From: a bacterium
GTDB lineage: Bacteria > JAHJDO01
Direction: 5' to 3'
Assembly: GCA_030652805.1 (NCBI GenBank)
Contig: JAUSPT010000002.1
Location: 1 to 10,869 of the forward strand
Length of the DNA stretch: 10,869 nucleotides
The notes beneath the pieces are model-generated. The model did no database searches. It was not told where the DNA came from and worked only from the letters and a program-made list of their open reading frames with translations. The stretch's first letter is position 1. Each line of letters begins with the position of its first letter. A program made the position numbers and the translations under genes. Positions 2,863-10,869 of the stretch are shown in pieces.

Positions 2863-4121
2863 AAACAGTTCGCGGGACAAGTGATATATTACCAAGTGAT
2901 GTAGGTACCTGGCAGGCGTTAGAGCTTGTTTCCAGAAATCTGCTGGAAGCTTATGATTATAGGGAGATTCGCACGCCTATATTTGAACAAGCCGGACTCT
3001 TTCAAAAAAGTGTTGGGGAATCTACAGACATTGTAAGTAAAGAAATGTATGTGTTCTCTGATAAAAAGGGTAGAGAACTCGCTCTTAGACCTGAAGGAAC
3101 TGCCTCGATCGTACGCTCATTTGTTGAGCACAATATGTATACACAGCCTTTTCCTGTAAAACTATACTACATAGGCCCATTTTTTAGATATGAAAGACCG
3201 CAGTCAGGAAGAACAAGGCAATTCCATCAGATTGGAGCAGAGGCAATTGGCATTGAAGATGTGAGACTGGATGCAGAGATAATTGATATTGCAATCCAAA
3301 TTCCATCCAAAATGGGCATTAAAAACCTAAAAGTAATGCTGAATAGCATTGGTTGTGGGGAATGCAGGTCAAAGTACGTAAAACATCTTCTAGCGCACCT
3401 TGAAAACCGAATCAAAAACCTGTGCATGGACTGTAAACGCAGATACTCTACTAATCCTTTAAGAATTCTGGACTGCAAAAAACCGGAATGCATTCAACAC
3501 GTAAAAGAAGGACCTACTATCACAGAAAATTTATGCGCCAAATGCAGGAATAAACTTGAGACAGTAGAGAAACACATAAACTGTTTAGGCATTGATTATC
3601 AAATACAGCCTTATCTTGTTCGTGGCCTTGATTATTACACAGGTGTGATCTTTGAGATTATTCATTCTCAGCTTGGCGCGCAGAATGTAGTTGCTGCCGG
3701 AGGAAGATATGATAACTTGGTTGAACAGATGGGTGGAAAATCAACTCCTGCTGTTGGATTTGCAGCAGGAATTGAGAGAATGATAATGCTATTAGCACAT
3801 AGAAACTTCCAAAGCAGCAACTCAGTATACCTAGTGTATCTCGATTTCCCCATGGATGAAAGAGTGTTTGCATTCCTTGCTGCATTAAGACAAAATGGAA
3901 TACATACCAAAACAACTTATCAGGAAAAAACTCTTAAGAACCAGTTGAAGACAGCCGCAAAATCAAACTGCAAATTCAGTCTGATTTTAGGCACAAATGA
4001 ACTATCAAAAGGCACTGTCATTCTTCGCGATATGAAAACAAGTACACAAGAAGAGATTAGGCTTGATAATGCAGTGTCAATCATAAAGGGAAAGTTAGTT
4101 AAAGGAGTCATTTTGACATGA
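2853..4121 (+). CDS. hisS: Histidine--tRNA ligase
   Basis: Histidyl-tRNA synthetase, a cytoplasmic class II enzyme that charges tRNA-His using ATP. The 422-residue product shows VRGTSDILP (6-14), motif 1 region PIFEQAGLF to the ALRPEGT loop (42-83), motif 2 around [13 protein letters not shown] (105-117) with the GRTRQFHQ loop, the histidine-specific signature RGLDYYTG (257-264), and motif 3 GFAAGIERM (302-310). Between motif 2 and the signature lies an insertion with CGEC, CMDC and CAKC pairs (about 168-231), found in many bacterial HisRS and likely zinc-binding. The C-terminal anticodon-binding domain follows residue about 325. A GTG start at 2853 (or the adjacent GTG 2856) is set by AGAGGA at 2845-2850. 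The next gene begins inside its stop codon (ATGA). Confidence 0.97.
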
Positions 4122-4981
4122 AAAGAGAAATAATAGTTCAGCTCAATAAAACGTTTGAAGGATTGACATATACGCAAAAGGGTGTTGAGTATTGGATGGC
4201 AAGAGATCTTCAGGAATTATTAGATTACACGGATTGGCGTAATTTTTTACAGGTTATTGAAAAAGCTAAAACATCTTGTGCGAATTTTAGCCAAGATACG
4301 ACAGACCATTTTGTTGACGTTAACAAAATGGTCAAGTTGGGCTCTGGAAGCGAACGGCAAATTGACGATGTTATGCTTACTCGCTATGCCTGTTACTTAA
4401 TAGCCCAAAACGGTGATCCTCGCAAGGAACAGATAGCTTTTGCACAGAGTTATTTCGCTATTCAAACACGTAAACAAGAATTGCTGGAAGAGCGTATTGC
4501 GTTGGCGGAACGTATACGAGCTCGCGAAAAACTTGCGGATACCGAATCAAAACTTTCAGGGGTTGTGTATGAGCGCGGTGTTGACGGAAAGGGATTTGCG
4601 CGATTACGGAGTAAAGGTGACCACGCGCTTTTTGGTGGATATACGACACTGCAAATGAAAAAGAAGCTTGGCGTGCCAGAAAAACGTCCTTTAGCTGATT
4701 TTTTGCCAACTATAACTATTAAGGCAAAAGATTTTGCGGCTGAAATTACCAGCTTTAATACAAAAAAGAAAAATTTACGCGATGAGCAGGCTATTACGGG
4801 CGAACATATAAAAAACAACAAAGATGTGCGGAATCTACTCAAGAAAAGTGGGATAAAGCCTGAGTCTTTGCCTCCTGAAGAAGATATTAAAAAATTACAG
4901 CGTAGGATTAAATCCGAGGATAAAAAGATCGCAGGAAACATAAAAACATCGAAGAGTTTGAAGATAACCCGAAACGATTAA
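4118..4981 (+). CDS. dinD: DNA damage-inducible protein D homologue
   Basis: A 287-residue homologue of E. coli DinD (274 residues), an SOS-induced protein reported to bind RecA and inhibit strand exchange. The recognisable core is the LTRYACYLIAQNGDP region (87-101) leading into the helical FAIQTRKQE stretch (113-121), then YERGVDGKGF (151-160) and KGDHALFGG (166-174). The C-terminal third (about 205-287) is Lys/Glu-rich and probably helical. ATG 4118 overlaps the hisS stop (ATGA), with AAAGGAG 10 nt upstream at 4101-4107, so translation is coupled to hisS. I see no LexA-type box in front of it, so if it is damage-controlled here, control acts at an upstream operon promoter or not at all. 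The family call is from remembered motifs but the match is extensive. Confidence 0.88.
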   Translation: MKREIIVQLNKTFEGLTYTQKGVEYWMARDLQELLDYTDWRNFLQVIEKAKTSCANFSQDTTDHFVDVNKMVKLGSGSERQIDDVMLTRYACYLIAQNGDPRKEQIAFAQSYFAIQTRKQELLEERIALAERIRAREKLADTESKLSGVVYERGVDGKGFARLRSKGDHALFGGYTTLQMKKKLGVPEKRPLADFLPTITIKAKDFAAEITSFNTKKKNLRDEQAITGEHIKNNKDVRNLLKKSGIKPESLPPEEDIKKLQRRIKSEDKKIAGNIKTSKSLKITRND

Positions 4982-5521: not shown

Positions 5522-7018
5522 TCAAGGCGATCTTGTTTGTGGCAAATCAAATTGTCTGAAGAGTTCGGGAGTTAGCCCTTTGGTTAAAAGAGTCATGAGA
5601 ACTTGTTTGGGATCCAATCCTTTGAGTTTGGCAGTTTGGATAATAGTTGAAATAAGAGATACGTTCTTAGTTCCCTGGTCAGAGCGATTGCCAAAAGTAA
5701 TCTTTCTGAAGATGACCAAATTTCTTAAACTTCTTTCGGCTATATTGTTGGTTGGTTTTACTACTTTTGGATACTTAAGAAAAGTCAGGATTTCATCATT
5801 ATGTTTTAGCAATCTTTTGCGCAAGGTTTCAGCCTTGGGATGTGAAATGGGAATTTTGTACAAGCTTTTAAATCTACGGAAGATATTCTTTTTAGAGGAT
5901 TTCCATTTTTCCGGAGGCAATTTGTCATGTTGACTAAGAAGAAGGATAGCGTCTTGAATAAGCTTTTTGAGATTGTTGCAGAACGAAATAACTTCTGTCT
6001 CCTCAGGAAACTTTTCCTCAAGATCCTTAACAGCTCTAAGCAGATGAGCATTGCACTTTTGTTTAGCAAAAGCGTTGATGGAACTGTTGTAAGCAGAATA
6101 AAAGTCAGAGCTAAGAATGCCCTTGTAGTTAGAACCAAGATGTTCTTTAACAACATCTCCGGAGCGATGAGGATCAATATGGAAGAAAATAAGTTGTTCG
6201 TTAGAGAAAGTCCAAAGCCATTTCTTCTTCCAGCCTGTTTCATCGGCATAGATAGAGGAAGTATATGGTAACATCTTTTTTAAAGCTTCATAGAGAGATA
6301 GCCCTTTTCGGTAGATTTTGTTATCAAATCCGACAATTGCTCCCGGAGTTATTTCTAAACCAAACAAATTTTGGAGGATATGTTGAATATCATCATAAGA
6401 GATTTTAGTCTGATATCTAAGAAAACCTGCAACAGCTTTAGCAACAGGACCGATGGGAGCTTTAGGGATTTCGTTTTCTGCGACGCCAGAAACAACCTTC
6501 TTGCAATGAGGACACCAGTAATGGAAATGGACAAAGGATCTTGTAATAACTTTTTTGATAACAATGTCCTGCTGAACATGCTCGTCAGTATCTTTGCAGA
6601 TAGAAAGTTTAGAATTGCCGCAGACAGGACATTTCTTCAGAGGTACAGCAACATATTCGTCAATAGTTTCAGGATTTTTTCTGGATGCTCCAGGATGACC
6701 AAATGGCGCGCCTCTTTTCTTTGGAGTATCGCCAGAAGAATTTCTTTTGGAATAAAACTTCTTAAACGGAGCTTGTTGAGCTTGAGTAAGATCTTCTTCA
6801 AGGGATTTCTTTTCTTGGGTAAGCTGGCCTACCTGTTCTTTAAGTTTAGTAATTTCACGTTCAGCAAAACCAAAAAGATTCTGCATTTGATTAACCCTCT
6901 CCCTGAGATAGTTTCTTTCAGCAAGTACCTTGAAAGTAGATTCTCCGTTAAGATGCGGACAGGATTTAGAGAAATGGCAATGCTGAACTTTTGTTGCAGG
7001 AAAATGAGAATAGCTCAT
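5522..7018 (-). CDS. tnpC: IS66-family transposase TnpC
   Basis: The 498-residue DDE transposase cuts and joins the element ends. In order: a Cys/His-rich N-terminus (C14, C20, H22); a coiled coil of about 34-82; the basic SKRNSSGDTPKKRGAPFGHPG linker (about 90-110); an IS66 zinc finger with CPVC (130-133) and CPHC (169-172); then the catalytic core with D259 in YADETGW, D305 in LSSDFYSAY and E428 in NNIAERSLR, plus CNAHLLRAVKDL (322-333). Length is normal and all three acidic residues are present, so it looks intact. Its ATG overlaps the stop of the upstream DUF6788-like gene (ATGA), so translation is coupled. It ends 82 bp inside the left terminal repeat. Confidence 0.96.
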   Translation of the reverse strand: MSYSHFPATKVQHCHFSKSCPHLNGESTFKVLAERNYLRERVNQMQNLFGFAEREITKLKEQVGQLTQEKKSLEEDLTQAQQAPFKKFYSKRNSSGDTPKKRGAPFGHPGASRKNPETIDEYVAVPLKKCPVCGNSKLSICKDTDEHVQQDIVIKKVITRSFVHFHYWCPHCKKVVSGVAENEIPKAPIGPVAKAVAGFLRYQTKISYDDIQHILQNLFGLEITPGAIVGFDNKIYRKGLSLYEALKKMLPYTSSIYADETGWKKKWLWTFSNEQLIFFHIDPHRSGDVVKEHLGSNYKGILSSDFYSAYNSSINAFAKQKCNAHLLRAVKDLEEKFPEETEVISFCNNLKKLIQDAILLLSQHDKLPPEKWKSSKKNIFRRFKSLYKIPISHPKAETLRKRLLKHNDEILTFLKYPKVVKPTNNIAERSLRNLVIFRKITFGNRSDQGTKNVSLISTIIQTAKLKGLDPKQVLMTLLTKGLTPELFRQFDLPQTRSP

Positions 7019-7320
7019 TCTTCAAATTCACCTTTTTTAATTAATTGGACATTTATGTCTGTAAGTTCTTCAAGGAGCTTTTTATGATGTTTCCAGTTAT
7101 TGGTAAGTTTTTTCATTTTGTTATAGTATTTTTTAGGAACGTAAAACATGTTTTGTTTCCCTTTTGCAGAGAAGGAAAAAAAGTAGCCACGGTGAAGTTC
7201 TCCTCTTTGACATTTACAGCCCTTTTTCCCGCAAGAACGATAACTTTCTGCCAGAGAACCCTTCATCATGTCAGTAGTTTTGCTCAGGTAATTAAGAATT
7301 TGTTTTTTGCGTATGGGCAA
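7015..7320 (-). CDS. DUF6788-like accessory protein of the IS66-type element
   Basis: A 101-residue basic protein with the motif CGKKGCKCQRGELHRGY (30-46), then FSFSAKGKQNMFYVPKKYY and a helical C-terminus rich in Leu/Glu (LLEELTDINVQLIKKGEFEE). From memory this fits the DUF6788 family, often found just ahead of IS66-like transposases. The CxxxxCxC cluster with a nearby His suggests metal binding, perhaps DNA binding for transposition; its function is not established. It starts at TTG 7320, supported by GAGAGG (plus 7329-7334) 8 nt upstream and by a near-consensus promoter further up. The stop overlaps the tnpC start by ATGA. Confidence 0.85.
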   Translation of the reverse strand: MPIRKKQILNYLSKTTDMMKGSLAESYRSCGKKGCKCQRGELHRGYFFSFSAKGKQNMFYVPKKYYNKMKKLTNNWKHHKKLLEELTDINVQLIKKGEFEE

Positions 7321-8155: not shown

Positions 8156-8182
8156 GGGCGAACATCATGTTCGCCCTTTTTT
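8156..8182 (+). terminator. Intrinsic terminator after dfx
   Basis: A perfect 9-bp stem, GGGCGAACA (8156-8164) and TGTTCGCCC (8168-8176), with a TCA loop is followed directly by six T. It isolates dfx from the module downstream. The 50 nt before it are AT-rich with no gene. Confidence 0.93.
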
Positions 8183-8203
8183 CTTTTTACACATAGAATA
8201 CCG

Positions 8204-8220
8204 TGTTACAATAACGAAAA
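8204..8220. promoter_or_regulatory. Operator-like repeat, upstream copy
   Basis: GTTACAATAACGAAAA (8205-8220) is repeated exactly at 8244-8259, 39 bp downstream. The core is an inverted repeat of GTTA and TAAC around a CAA centre. This copy lies just upstream of the -35 at 8223. Confidence 0.65.
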
Positions 8221-8222
8221 AC

Positions 8223-8251
8223 TTGACAAAATAGGTGTAATTCGTTACAAT
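8223..8251 (+). promoter_or_regulatory. Strong promoter of the HEPN-like/nucleotidyltransferase module
   Basis: A perfect TTGACA (8223-8228) and a TACAAT -10 (8246-8251) are spaced 17 nt apart. The start would be near 8258, about 15 nt before ATG 8273. The -10 lies inside the downstream operator-like repeat, so a bound repressor would block it. Confidence 0.8.
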
Positions 8252-8259
8252 AACGAAAA
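8243..8259. promoter_or_regulatory. Operator-like repeat overlapping the -10
   Basis: CGTTACAATAACG (8243-8255) has 5-bp arms, CGTTA and TAACG, around CAA, and includes the -10 hexamer TACAAT. It is an exact 16-bp repeat of 8205-8220. A repeated palindrome placed on a promoter is the usual layout for autoregulation in toxin-antitoxin operons; the binding protein is unknown. Confidence 0.65.
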
Positions 8260-8272
8260 GAAAGGATGAAAA

Positions 8273-8641
8273 ATGGGTGATTTTCAGAAACATTTAGGAT
8301 TGGCAAAAGAAAAACTTAGAGCAGCAATTGATGCTTATAACAACAAACAAAACACAGTAGTAGGAGATTTAGGCACAAAGGTTGTTGAGCAGTTAGTAGA
8401 AACTGATGCTGCTAGAAATGGAGAGCATTTTGGTGACCATAAGAGCAGGCATGAATACTCAAATAAGAATTTCCCTGCTGAAGTAAACAAGGCAATGCGT
8501 AAGATATGGTTTGCCTATGGTGATTTGGGTTATGACGGAATTAATGGCAACAGAGCCAAGACAGTGGTAGATAATCTTAAAATAATAATTGAGTTTTTTG
8601 AAAAAAGGTTTGAAGTAGAAATCTATGAAAAGAATACTTAA
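8273..8641 (+). CDS. Small helical protein, possibly HEPN-like, partner of the nucleotidyltransferase
   Basis: I do not recognise the family with certainty. The 122-residue product looks all-alpha: helices of about 3-23, 29-48, 68-83 and 94-113, a layout compatible with HEPN ribonuclease-type proteins. A polar stretch between helices 2 and 3 holds R48, H52, H56, R59, H60, E61 and Y62. The toxin signature RX4HXY of HepT is nearly but not exactly present: HEY fits HXY, yet the residue five before H60 is D55, not Arg. A conserved-looking FAYGDLGYDG (80-89) follows. AAGGA (8262-8266) sets the start. The gene overlaps the nucleotidyltransferase by 17 nt, the usual toxin-antitoxin arrangement. The HEPN call rests mainly on context. 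Confidence 0.6.
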   Translation: MGDFQKHLGLAKEKLRAAIDAYNNKQNTVVGDLGTKVVEQLVETDAARNGEHFGDHKSRHEYSNKNFPAEVNKAMRKIWFAYGDLGYDGINGNRAKTVVDNLKIIIEFFEKRFEVEIYEKNT

Positions 8642-9203
8642 AAAGATATCAAAAGAGCTTTCAAAAATTGAAGATGTAAAAGCTGTCATCCTTTATGGGA
8701 GTCTTGCCAGAGGAGAATTTACTTCAAGGTCAGACATTGATTTATTTATACTTACAACCGAAGATAAGAGCCTGAGGGAAGTGCAGGATAAAGTTATAGA
8801 GCTTGAATCAGAAATAGGCAGAAATATCCAGCCGACAATAAGAACCATAGTTGAATTGCAAAAGACAGATACAGGCTTGCTCCAGAACATCTTTCAGGAA
8901 GGAAAGATTCTCTATCTGAGAGAGCCATCCGACATACCATCTGCTATACTGCTGAAGCAGAAACCTTACCTGATTTATTCTTTTCAGATAAGCAACTTAC
9001 TCCAAAAAGATAAGGTGCGATTTAACAGACAGCTTTACGAACAGATAAGAAAAGGATACAAGTATAAAGGTTTACTGCAGGAAATAGCCGGGCAGAAGCT
9101 TTCTGCGGGTTGTGTAATGATTCCTTATGAGCAAATGGGGAAGATTGAAAAATTCTTCAAGAAATTCAAAGTGCAGTTTGAACAGTTGAAAGTGTGGAAA
9201 TAG
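8625..9203 (+). CDS. Nucleotidyltransferase domain protein (MNT type) with C-terminal domain
   Basis: The 192-residue protein starts with a polymerase-beta-type nucleotidyltransferase domain: GSLARG (25-30) and SDIDLF (36-41) form the GS...DXD active site with D37 and D39. A third catalytic acid is expected on a strand near 72-82, but the stretch there (QPTIRTIVEL) has no Asp, so activity may be reduced or use E81. Residues about 103-192 are a separate domain with YKYKGLLQEIAG (about 145-156), which I recall from archaeal nucleotidyltransferases; its role is unknown to me. In MNT-HEPN toxin-antitoxin pairs the MNT protein neutralises the HEPN RNase by adding AMP to its active-site tyrosine. 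The 17-nt overlap with the helical partner supports that kind of pairing. The pairing is an inference. Confidence 0.75.
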   Translation: MKRILKKISKELSKIEDVKAVILYGSLARGEFTSRSDIDLFILTTEDKSLREVQDKVIELESEIGRNIQPTIRTIVELQKTDTGLLQNIFQEGKILYLREPSDIPSAILLKQKPYLIYSFQISNLLQKDKVRFNRQLYEQIRKGYKYKGLLQEIAGQKLSAGCVMIPYEQMGKIEKFFKKFKVQFEQLKVWK

Positions 9204-9251
9204 GAATTACGATAAACGTCTAAGTGAAATTTTATGAGAGAGGGTTTTGGA

Positions 9252-9563
9252 ATGGATAAGAATCAAGAATTTATTTTAGAGAAAATTAAATACGGATTAG
9301 CCAACAAGTATCCACCGGAAACGATGAGTAAAAAAGATGTTGAAAGATTGAATTGGGATGCTGATAACTATTCTAAAGTTCCATGGGAAGAATGGAGCGA
9401 ATGGTCAAGAAAAATCCTTCGCTTTGCTCAGGAAGCTTTCACAAGCGGGAAACCATTACGGTTCCCGACAAGAATAATCACTTTATTTCTATCATCTCGC
9501 CGCAACTGGGACAATGCAAATAGCTTTGACCATCATCGTGATATTCTTTACCGCCAGGTTTAA
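9252..9563 (+). pseudogene. Third gene of the module, truncated by the IS91-type element
   Basis: ATG 9252 has GAGAGAGGG (9236-9244) 7 nt upstream, preferred over ATG 9234, which lies inside that site. About 64 residues look native: an N-terminal helix, then PPETMSKKDVERLNWDADNY and a Trp-rich WEEWSEWSRKILRF segment. At 9442-9445 the frame meets CAAG and the transposon hairpin; beyond that it runs through antisense transposon sequence to a chance stop at 9563. I do not recognise the protein. It lies 48 nt after the nucleotidyltransferase and may belong to the same operon. Confidence 0.5.
9442..9472. repeat. Hairpin and CAAG sites at the IS91-type end
   Basis: CGGGAAACC (9446-9454) pairs with GGTTCCCG (9460-9467) across an ATTAC loop, with one bulged A. 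CAAG lies directly on its left (9442-9445) and again 2 nt to its right (9469-9472). IS91-family elements insert next to CAAG or GAAC at the end that lies downstream of the transposase gene, and that end has a hairpin. This is the expected position for that end. No T-run follows, so a terminator is less likely. Confidence 0.55.
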
Positions 9564-9675
9564 ACTGCTCAATATATTCTATGGGAACATTAATTTGATG
9601 CTTGCATTTGGAACAAGAATAATTGATTGTTCTGTCGGATTGTCCTTTGTTCTTTGGACTCTTTTTCCACCACAT
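9478..9675 (-). CDS. Small zinc-ribbon protein overlapping the transposase gene
   Basis: The 65-residue product has two CXXC pairs in an ordered ribbon: CSKC at 21-24 and CPSC at 55-58, separated by a segment containing VPIEYIEQFKPGGKEYHDDG. ATG 9675 lies inside the transposase gene in another frame (86-bp overlap), and AGGAG (plus 9683-9687) sits 7 nt upstream, so it can be translated on its own. Length, zinc pattern and ribosome binding site argue for a real gene rather than an overlap artefact. It may alternatively be a C-terminal extension of the transposase lost by a shift at the A5 run in GTGGTGGAAAAAGAG. Its role is unknown; DNA binding in transposition is possible. Confidence 0.55.
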   Translation of the reverse strand: MWWKKSPKNKGQSDRTINYSCSKCKHQINVPIEYIEQFKPGGKEYHDDGQSYLHCPSCGEMIEIK

Positions 9676-10869
9676 CCTTTCTCTCCTCTACCCATTTCCC
9701 ATCCCTAAAGATATCATAAACTCTTCCGTATTTAGGATGCCACACCTCATAAAGAATAAGCTCTTCTCCACACTTGGGACATCTAAATGGATCTATGCCA
9801 AAACTCTTCTGGAGTCTGCTTCTATAGTCTCCAGAGGAAGACGATGTACCTAAAAAAGAAATGAATTCATGCGAAATAGCTTTTGTAAATCTAAATGTTC
9901 TATCGATTAATTTTTTTACCTTCTTAACCTTACAACGGGCATACAGACCATAGTGACGGATAAGCTTTAAACCCTTGGGAGGGATGTGTTGTATTAGCAT
10001 TGCAATAAATTCATATGCATTAACCTTGGCAAAAACCTGCCTGTCTGTAGGATGCTCTCTATACCAATACCTCACGTATTCACCATCATAACCAGCTATT
10101 CTGTATAACGCTATGGGAGGGGATGCAACGTATTTGATCAAGTATCCGATGATGTCCGTTTTTCTTACTTTCTCTTTCTTAGCTCGGGCAATAAGCCCTG
10201 TTTCGCTTCTCTTCTCGAATACTTCTTCAATCAACCTCATTGCCTCTGGATCCTTGCTTAAAGCCTTCTTTAACGCGCTTAAGAGAATATACATCCACTT
10301 CTTGCGTAATATTTTGTAATCAAAATAATAAAACTTTTTCCAGTGATTATCTTTATCCAGTCCTCCCTCTGTAACCAGAAGATGCAGGTGTGGATTCCAT
10401 GTAGATCTCCGCCCTGCAGTCTGGGTAATTAAGATAGTTCCCAATTCTATTTTCTTGCCTCTTGAACATATACAGCAGACCTCTTGAACCAGTTTTGCTC
10501 CAGAGTCAGCTAAAAGCTTAAGCATTTGACCATCGTGGAAATACTTCCATAGACTTCCTGGAACAGTAAGGATAATGTGGCGATGCTCAATCTTGGCAAA
10601 TATAGTTTGCTTCATCCTGACTACCCAGTTATCAGTATATACCTTAGAACAACGCAGGCAAAACCTTGATTTGCAACTAAATGGAACTCTCTTGATATAA
10701 CCGCAGCTACAACGATATTCAGCATAGCCGTTCTTGAACAGTCCACAACCCAGCATCTTTTGGACATTAACCTCAATATCTTCATCTACATGCTCAGGAT
10801 GAAACTCCTTGAACCCTTCCCAATGATCCCGAAATATCTGGATGAGCCTGTTTTTGTAGTAGATAGGAC
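9590..10869 (-). CDS. IS91-family (HUH) transposase, N-terminus outside the window
   Basis: A rolling-circle type transposase. The frame has no stop up to the right edge: 37 further codons upstream of ATG 10756 are open and read like the family N-terminus (RLIQIFRDHWEGF), so the true start lies beyond 10869. Numbering from ATG 10756: a zinc-binding domain with CSCG (16-19), C28, C33 and C36 (SCKSRFCLRC); HUH-type HLH at 123-125 in NPHLHLLVTEGG; candidate catalytic Tyr205 or Tyr209 in GYLIKYV; then the family block PPIALYR (213-219) and IQHIPPKGLKLIRHYG (255-270); and a C-terminal CPKC (326-329). It nicks one strand at the element end for one-ended transfer. The visible part looks intact. Confidence 0.88.
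   Translation of the reverse strand, partial: PIYYKNRLIQIFRDHWEGFKEFHPEHVDEDIEVNVQKMLGCGLFKNGYAEYRCSCGYIKRVPFSCKSRFCLRCSKVYTDNWVVRMKQTIFAKIEHRHIILTVPGSLWKYFHDGQMLKLLADSGAKLVQEVCCICSRGKKIELGTILITQTAGRRSTWNPHLHLLVTEGGLDKDNHWKKFYYFDYKILRKKWMYILLSALKKALSKDPEAMRLIEEVFEKRSETGLIARAKKEKVRKTDIIGYLIKYVASPPIALYRIAGYDGEYVRYWYREHPTDRQVFAKVNAYEFIAMLIQHIPPKGLKLIRHYGLYARCKVKKVKKLIDRTFRFTKAISHEFISFLGTSSSSGDYRSRLQKSFGIDPFRCPKCGEELILYEVWHPKYGRVYDIFRDGKWVEERKDVVEKESKEQRTIRQNNQLFLFQMQASN

What the first reader, a model, noticed from the sequence alone, without database searches (positions are those of the whole stretch)
8202..9203. Two-gene helical-protein/nucleotidyltransferase module that may be an undescribed toxin-antitoxin variant
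Seen: a strong promoter with repeated palindromes, a 122-residue helical protein, and a 17-nt overlap with a GS...DXD nucleotidyltransferase that carries an unusual extra domain. Known: HEPN-MNT (HepT-MntA) pairs share this layout, with an RX4HXY toxin motif and AMP transfer by MNT. Here the RX4HXY arginine is replaced (D55 before HEY 60-62) and no third Asp is apparent in the MNT domain. So it is either a divergent branch with altered chemistry or a different kind of pair. A second highly unusual trait is the FAYGDLGYDG block shared by no toxin motif I know.
Basis: partly seen in the sequence, partly recalled or inferred. Interest (0 to 1): 0.75.

Follow-up and report, generated by a model that had tools for sequence, protein, structure and literature searches.

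The report
Divergent HEPN–MNT toxin–antitoxin-like gene pair
Two overlapping genes that travel together between unrelated microbes look like a poison-and-antidote pair built on the known HEPN–MNT plan; the poison part has lost the usual cutting motif, and the antidote carries an extra, previously uncatalogued domain that probably lets it switch off its own promoter.

Summary
In detail: 8202-9203 carries two palindromes, a near-consensus promoter, a 122-aa helical protein (P1) and an overlapping 192-aa GSx10DxD nucleotidyltransferase (P2) with a C-terminal extension. P1 matches no Pfam, NCBIfam or PADLOC family, but its predicted structure is a HEPN fold (best match AF_0298, Z 16.0 over 116 residues). 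P2 residues 1-100 are an MNT domain; its extension looks ferredoxin-like. The pair stays together in all 13 loci with enough sequence, across bacterial phyla and an archaeal MAG, and is patchy within the genus. Four loci have P1 broken by stops or a frameshift while P2 is intact, as expected if P1 is the toxin. Two palindromes precede the pair throughout; an exact search of the host genome finds them nowhere else. Operator type follows P2 rather than P1, suggesting P2 is the repressor. This resembles the predicted but biochemically untested 'class II' HEPN/MNT modules. Verdict: new variant of a known kind. Toxicity, AMPylation of Tyr87 and DNA binding are inferred, not shown.

The parts
8202..8218 (.). 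operator palindrome 1 (CGTGTTACAATAACGAA)
   Evidence: sequence; counterpart at the same 39-bp spacing in most clade A homologues
8223..8228 (+). -35 box TTGACA, between the two palindromes
8241..8257 (.). operator palindrome 2 (TTCGTTACAATAACGAA), covering the -10 box
8246..8251 (+). -10 box TACAAT
8261..8266 (+). likely ribosome-binding site AAAGGA
   Evidence: sequence, inference
8273..8641 (+). P1: HEPN-fold protein, 122 aa, putative toxin; conserved H52, H56, R59, H60, Y62 and the Y82-N91 loop
   Evidence: broken in four relatives that keep P2
8625..9203 (+). P2: MNT-family nucleotidyltransferase (GSx10DxD), 192 aa, putative antitoxin
8937..9200 (+). C-terminal extension of P2 (about residues 105-192), ferredoxin-like alpha/beta; candidate DNA-binding/repressor module
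   Evidence: no Pfam match; C-terminal profile found only in MNT genes beside a HEPN-like gene
8156..8176 (+). terminator-like hairpin followed by a T-run behind the upstream desulfoferrodoxin gene; the pair has its own promoter

Best explanation
A mobile, self-regulating toxin-antitoxin-like pair on the HEPN-MNT plan. P1 is a HEPN-fold protein that most likely harms the cell when free (inferred). P2 is an MNT nucleotidyltransferase that binds P1 and most likely neutralises it, probably by adding AMP to the loop tyrosine Tyr87, the counterpart of the tyrosine modified in HepT (inferred). P2 (inferred, most likely through its C-terminal extension) or the P1-P2 complex binds the two palindromes that flank the -35 box and cover the -10 box, and represses the operon. 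If P1 is an RNase, its site must differ from the classical Rx4-6H, because the arginine is replaced by glycine; candidates are H52/H56/R59/H60 in the loop between helices 2 and 3, together with the Y82-N91 loop. Shown here: HEPN fold (prediction), MNT domain, strict linkage, patchy and horizontal distribution, purifying selection, conserved paired operators, and loss of P1 with retention of P2.
For: Fold: P1 model pLDDT 85.5, pTM 0.81; the top VIA-align rows are HEPN proteins, AF_0298 Z 16.0, 2.1 A, 116 residues, then ST0689 13.7, TT1696 13.0, sacsin HEPN 12.6, TM0613 12.5. P2: Polbeta 3e-18 and NTP_transf_2 1.3e-12, both over cut-off; MNT antitoxin structures Z 13.1; MntA_antitoxin 51.7 bits. 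Linkage: P2 directly follows P1 in all 13 loci that extend far enough; in 285 Omnitrophota genomes P1 and the P2 C-terminal domain occur in the same five genomes, plus one divergent MNT beside another HEPN-like gene. Mobility: 70-92% identical copies in Elusimicrobia, Omnitrophica, Aminicenantes, Anammoxibacter and an archaeal MAG; present at the desulfoferrodoxin locus in 3 of 5 genomes of the genus and absent there in 2. Toxin role of P1: broken in L007 (two TAA), L017 (TAG at codon 40), L018 (TGA at W79) and L020 (frameshift) while P2 is open in all four; no P2 break was seen. By gene length the chance of 4 of 4 hits in P1 is about 0.02. Intact copies: dN/dS 0.03-0.17 for both genes where measurable. 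Operators: two palindromes upstream of the close homologues read, 39-40 bp apart in clades A and B, not found elsewhere in the genome as exact matches. Repressor: L006 and L017 combine a clade-A-like P1 with a clade-B P2 and clade-B operators; operator type needs 1 change on the P2 tree and 2 on the P1 tree, and moving L006/L017 into clade A is rejected for P2, AU p 0.024. Precedent: MNT antitoxin SO_3165 binds its own promoter, which has two palindromes (PMC4621449).
Against: No experiment on this family. P1 lacks Rx4-6H, so toxicity and RNase activity are unproven; broken P1 copies could instead be decay of a non-toxic subunit, and the p of 0.02 rests on four MAG loci. P2 lacks the third metal aspartate, so AMP transfer may be weakened or lost. 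HEPN first is the reverse of the usual antitoxin-first order. Assigning the repressor to P2 rests on two related recombinant loci, and the P1 tree alone does not reject the opposite grouping (AU p 0.125 for protein, 0.259 for DNA). The profile-profile match to HEPN-T is weak by itself (P 0.0026, probability 12%).
Confidence: 0.62

Rival explanations
1. A two-subunit nucleotidyltransferase in which P1 is a substrate-binding subunit and P2 modifies a third partner (small molecule, RNA or protein); not a toxin-antitoxin pair.
For: P1 lacks Rx4-6H; HEPN-like domains serve as substrate-binding parts in ANT/KNT-type enzymes (structural matches), and this was an early proposal for HEPN-MNT (PMC3710099); P2 keeps GSx10DxD in all 13 aligned sequences.
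Against: Repeated loss of P1 with P2 kept open is odd for an obligate subunit; patchy mobile distribution and dedicated operators are typical of TA pairs; no neighbouring substrate gene is conserved.
Confidence: 0.18
2. Roles reversed: P2 is the toxic nucleotidyltransferase (as in AbiE or MenT systems) and P1 the antitoxin.
For: Nucleotidyltransferases are toxins in AbiEii and MenT (PMC3985639, PMC10435456 in the search); P1 is encoded first, the usual antitoxin position.
Against: Four loci keep an open P2 without a working P1, which would leave a free toxin; P2 is nearest to the MntA antitoxin model and to MNT antitoxin structures.
Confidence: 0.08
3. An ordinary member of the known class II (PF05168) HEPN/MNT modules that Pfam misses only because it is divergent, with nothing new in how it works.
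For: Nearest structures include HEPN-T proteins; collinear alignment to PF05168 members over 117 columns with the loop tyrosine kept; class II is described as lacking RX4H and keeping a tyrosine (PMC7641770).
Against: No PF05168 hit at E up to 10; the 'RYP' arginine is replaced by glycine; the P2 extension was not seen on the MNT partners of most PF05168 genes read; clade-specific paired operators.
Confidence: 0.12

Closest known systems
Class II HEPN/MNT modules (PF05168/PF01909)
   Same: HEPN-T-like fold, adjacent GSx10DxD MNT, no RX4HXY, conserved loop tyrosine, conserved His in the loop between helices 2 and 3
   Different: not recognised by PF05168; RYP arginine replaced by glycine; MNT with an extra C-terminal domain; HEPN gene first
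HepT/MntA, type VII toxin-antitoxin (class I; Shewanella SO_3166/SO_3165)
   Same: two overlapping small genes, HEPN plus MNT, GSx10DxD, promoter with two palindromes bound by the MNT antitoxin (PMC4621449)
   Different: no RX4HXY, no third MNT Asp, gene order reversed, MNT extended by about 90 residues
Legionella HEPN-MNT (Lpg)
   Same: HEPN fold with MNT partner; RNase activity reported to depend on residues other than RX4HXY (PMC11586414)
   Different: has RX4HXY; its MNT is minimal, without an extension
AF_0298 of Archaeoglobus fulgidus (PDB 2hsb)
   Same: closest structure to the P1 model (Z 16.0, 2.1 A)
   Different: only 7% identity; function not known to me

Membership tests
HEPN superfamily | HEPN helical-bundle fold | tested here: met
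   P1 model against PDB: the best rows are HEPN or HEPN-like proteins, Z 11.8-16.0 over 106-116 residues
HEPN superfamily | Rx4-6H RNase motif | tested here: not met
   no conserved Rx4-6H in the alignment; the loop Arg is Gly86. Several HEPN families lack it too (PMC3710099), so this does not remove fold membership
HepT/MntA (class I, type VII TA) | RX4HXY in HepT | tested here: not met
   D55 replaces R relative to H60/Y62, and the homologous loop has no R or H
HepT/MntA (class I, type VII TA) | GSx10DxD in MntA | tested here: met
   G25, S26, D37 and D39 invariant in 13 sequences
HepT/MntA (class I, type VII TA) | third metal Asp (D71 of SO_3165) | tested here: not met
   aligns with Arg73
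HepT/MntA (class I, type VII TA) | NCBIfam MntA_antitoxin model over cut-off | tested here: not met
   51.7 bits, cut-off 60
HepT/MntA (class I, type VII TA) | antitoxin AMPylates the toxin tyrosine | not testable with these tools
   candidate Tyr87 invariant in 10 sequences
Class II HEPN/MNT (PF05168/PF01909) | HEPN partner recognised by PF05168 | tested here: not met
   no PF05168 hit at E up to 10
Class II HEPN/MNT (PF05168/PF01909) | MNT partner recognised by PF01909 | tested here: met
   48.4 bits, cut-off 21
Class II HEPN/MNT (PF05168/PF01909) | conserved loop tyrosine without RX4H | tested here: met
   Y87 aligned with the Y of RYP
Toxin-antitoxin pairs in general | strictly linked, mobile two-gene operon | tested here: met
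Toxin-antitoxin pairs in general | one gene toxic, the other neutralising | not testable with these tools
   indirect: P1 broken with P2 intact in four loci
Toxin-antitoxin pairs in general | autoregulation at promoter palindromes | tested here: inconclusive
   paired palindromes conserved and not found elsewhere in the genome; binding not testable

The most novel reading that the evidence does not exclude
P1 represents a HEPN toxin branch with chemistry other than the Rx4-6H RNase (a relocated His/Arg site between helices 2 and 3, or a non-nucleolytic action), and P2 is a previously undescribed antitoxin type that joins toxin-modifying nucleotidyltransferase and sequence-specific repressor in one chain through a new ferredoxin-like domain.
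Probability: 0.3. Interest if true: 0.7.

Novelty: new variant of a known kind. Interest (0 to 1): 0.5.

Why it matters
HEPN/MNT pairs lacking the RNase motif (class II) are common in archaea and thermophilic bacteria, and the paper that defined them said it was unproven whether they are toxin-antitoxin systems at all (PMC7641770, 2020). This branch offers comparative evidence that the HEPN gene is the costly one, a defined candidate modification site (Tyr87), and an antitoxin that appears to carry its own DNA-binding module with swappable operator types, so the question becomes directly testable with two small genes.

Tried and rejected
P1 against Pfam, NCBIfam, PADLOC and PHROGs: no meaningful hit. 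P1 and its profile against PDB sequences: only chance hits. P1 in plasmids: none; in phages: four weak hits to an RNA ligase gene (E 0.08 or worse), taken as chance. P1 profile in viral contigs: no relative. P2 in plasmids: only the MNT domain of other pairs; in phages: none. P2 C-terminal domain: best structural rows are procarboxypeptidase pro-domains at Z about 7.5, taken as shared ferredoxin-like topology, not kinship; the domain could not be folded alone. Reading the stops in P1 as recoding: rejected, since different stop codons occur in different loci and neighbouring ORFs, P2 included, are normal.

Full report
Observation. The window holds two overlapping ORFs, P1 (8273-8641, 122 aa) and P2 (8625-9203, 192 aa), sharing 17 nt. 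Upstream lies a TTGACA-17-TACAAT promoter set into two palindromes: CGTGTTACAATAACGAA (8202-8218) and TTCGTTACAATAACGAA (8241-8257), centres 39 bp apart. The -10 box lies inside the second palindrome and the -35 box between the two. The promoter match alone is not above chance. The palindrome core CGTTAYNRTAACG occurs only three times in the 2.0-Mb genome, each time in front of one of the two copies of this pair; the fourth site (window palindrome 1) differs by one base.

What P1 is. No family library recognises P1. AlphaFold2 with ten homologues gives a confident five-helix model (pLDDT 85.5, pTM 0.81). Against solved structures the best rows are HEPN proteins: AF_0298 Z 16.0 (2.1 A, 116 of 122 residues), ST0689 13.7, TT1696 13.0, the sacsin HEPN domain 12.6, TM0613 12.5. 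Helical bundles can reach Z 13 by chance, but here the top is filled by one superfamily and the best row stands well above unrelated bundles. HepT toxins follow at Z about 8-10. A profile comparison with PF05168 (HEPN-T) proteins taken from related genomes is collinear over 117 columns, weak on its own (P 0.0026, probability 12%). H52 and H56 fall where HEPN-T proteins carry a conserved His between helices 2 and 3, and are invariant even in the most distant relative.

What P2 is. Residues 1-100 are an MNT domain (Polbeta 3e-18, NTP_transf_2 1.3e-12; MNT antitoxin 8xeo Z 13.1). GSx10DxD is invariant. The third metal-binding Asp of MntA, D71 in SO_3165 (PMC7641770), aligns with Arg73. About 90 extra residues form a predicted alpha/beta domain of ferredoxin-like topology with no Pfam match. 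In 285 Omnitrophota and 343 Planctomycetota genomes this domain was found seven times: six beside P1 and once (L027) beside a different 120-aa HEPN-like protein with the same H-x3-H pattern.

Linkage and mobility. P1 relatives occur in the host genome (two copies), its genus, an archaeal MAG, Elusimicrobia, Omnitrophica, Aminicenantes and Anammoxibacter. P2 follows directly in all 13 loci with enough sequence; two further contigs end inside the pair. Protein identity of 80% and more between phyla, two copies in one genome, and presence in 3 of 5 but absence in 2 of 5 genomes of the genus at the desulfoferrodoxin locus point to horizontal movement. Some copies sit beside HsdM, an N6/N4 DNA methylase, DUF3800 or DUF4062 genes, a defence-island setting. 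Intact copies are under strong purifying selection where it can be measured (dN/dS 0.03-0.17).

Which gene is the toxin. In L007 (two TAA), L017 (TAG at codon 40), L018 (TGA at Trp79) and L020 (frameshift) P1 is broken, while P2 is open full length in each. No locus showed the reverse. If breaks fell by gene length, four of four in P1 has a chance of about 0.02. This is the pattern expected when the toxin is shed and the antitoxin kept. It is indirect evidence from MAGs.

Who binds the operators. The upstream regions of the close homologues have two palindromes sharing a TTAnnnTAA core: TTCGTTA-TAACGAA in clade A; TTCCTTA-TAAGGAA, or imperfect variants, in clade B (L006, L017, L019, L020, L029); a TCTTA-TAAGA form in L030. 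Spacing is 39-40 bp in A and B. L006 and L017 carry a P1 that is 78-85% identical to clade A (L007 apart) and 58-72% to clade B, but a P2 nearer to clade B, and clade B operators. Operator type changes once on the P2 tree and twice on the P1 tree. Forcing L006/L017 into clade A is rejected for P2 (AU p 0.024), but holding the clade B set together is not rejected on P1 (AU p 0.125). I therefore favour P2, probably through its extension, as the repressor, as a lean rather than a proof. SO_3165, a MNT antitoxin, binds its own two-palindrome promoter (PMC4621449).

Mechanism. Most likely, P1 damages the cell when free, P2 binds it and adds AMP to Tyr87, and P2 or the complex represses transcription; falling P2 would free P1 and open the promoter. 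Fold, motif, linkage, operators and P1 loss are computed here; toxicity, AMPylation and DNA binding are inference.

Known relatives and novelty. PMC7641770 split HEPN/MNT pairs into class I (RX4HXY, proven) and class II (PF05168, no RX4H, conserved Tyr, not tested by 2020). I found no later test of class II in the paper searches made here, which cover open-licence papers only. This pair works like class II but fails its defining profile, has lost the RYP arginine and adds a domain to the MNT. I call it a new variant of a known kind. Interest is moderate: the plan is known, yet the branch gives a clear handle on an open question.

Noticed in passing
window 5522-7320 (-) and 9590-10756 (-): The pair lies between an IS66-family transposase with a DUF6788 companion and an IS91-type (Y2) transposase; the small ORF at 9234-9563 runs towards the IS91 side and may be truncated.
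   Followed up: partly
window 4118-4981 (+): DinD-like protein (NCBIfam DNA damage-inducible protein D, 363.9 bits; Bro-N domain) next to hisS.
   Followed up: no
L002 (second copy, same genome): The second copy of the pair sits directly upstream of a type I restriction HsdM gene.
   Followed up: partly
L008 1058-1894 (-): A canonical class I HepT-like/MNT pair lies about 2.1 kb from this pair's P1 on the same contig.
   Followed up: no
L039 (G000:C26:7555-7899): The host also carries a PF05168 HEPN gene whose MNT partner appears fused to a winged-helix-like N-terminal part, another case of an MNT joined to a likely DNA-binding part.
   Followed up: partly
L027 791-1770 (+): Distant relative: MNT with the same C-terminal domain but a different HEPN-like partner, so the domain is not tied to P1 alone.
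   Followed up: partly
L058: In genus-mate G003 the desulfoferrodoxin locus lacks this pair, and the locus carries a different small gene that looks like a Panacea/SocA-type antitoxin by eye.
   Followed up: no
The search of solved structures, 9xbd_E: Closest solved sequence to the P2 profile is an unnamed nucleotidyltransferase (E 1.6e-9) that also lacks the third Asp; its partner was not identified.
   Followed up: no
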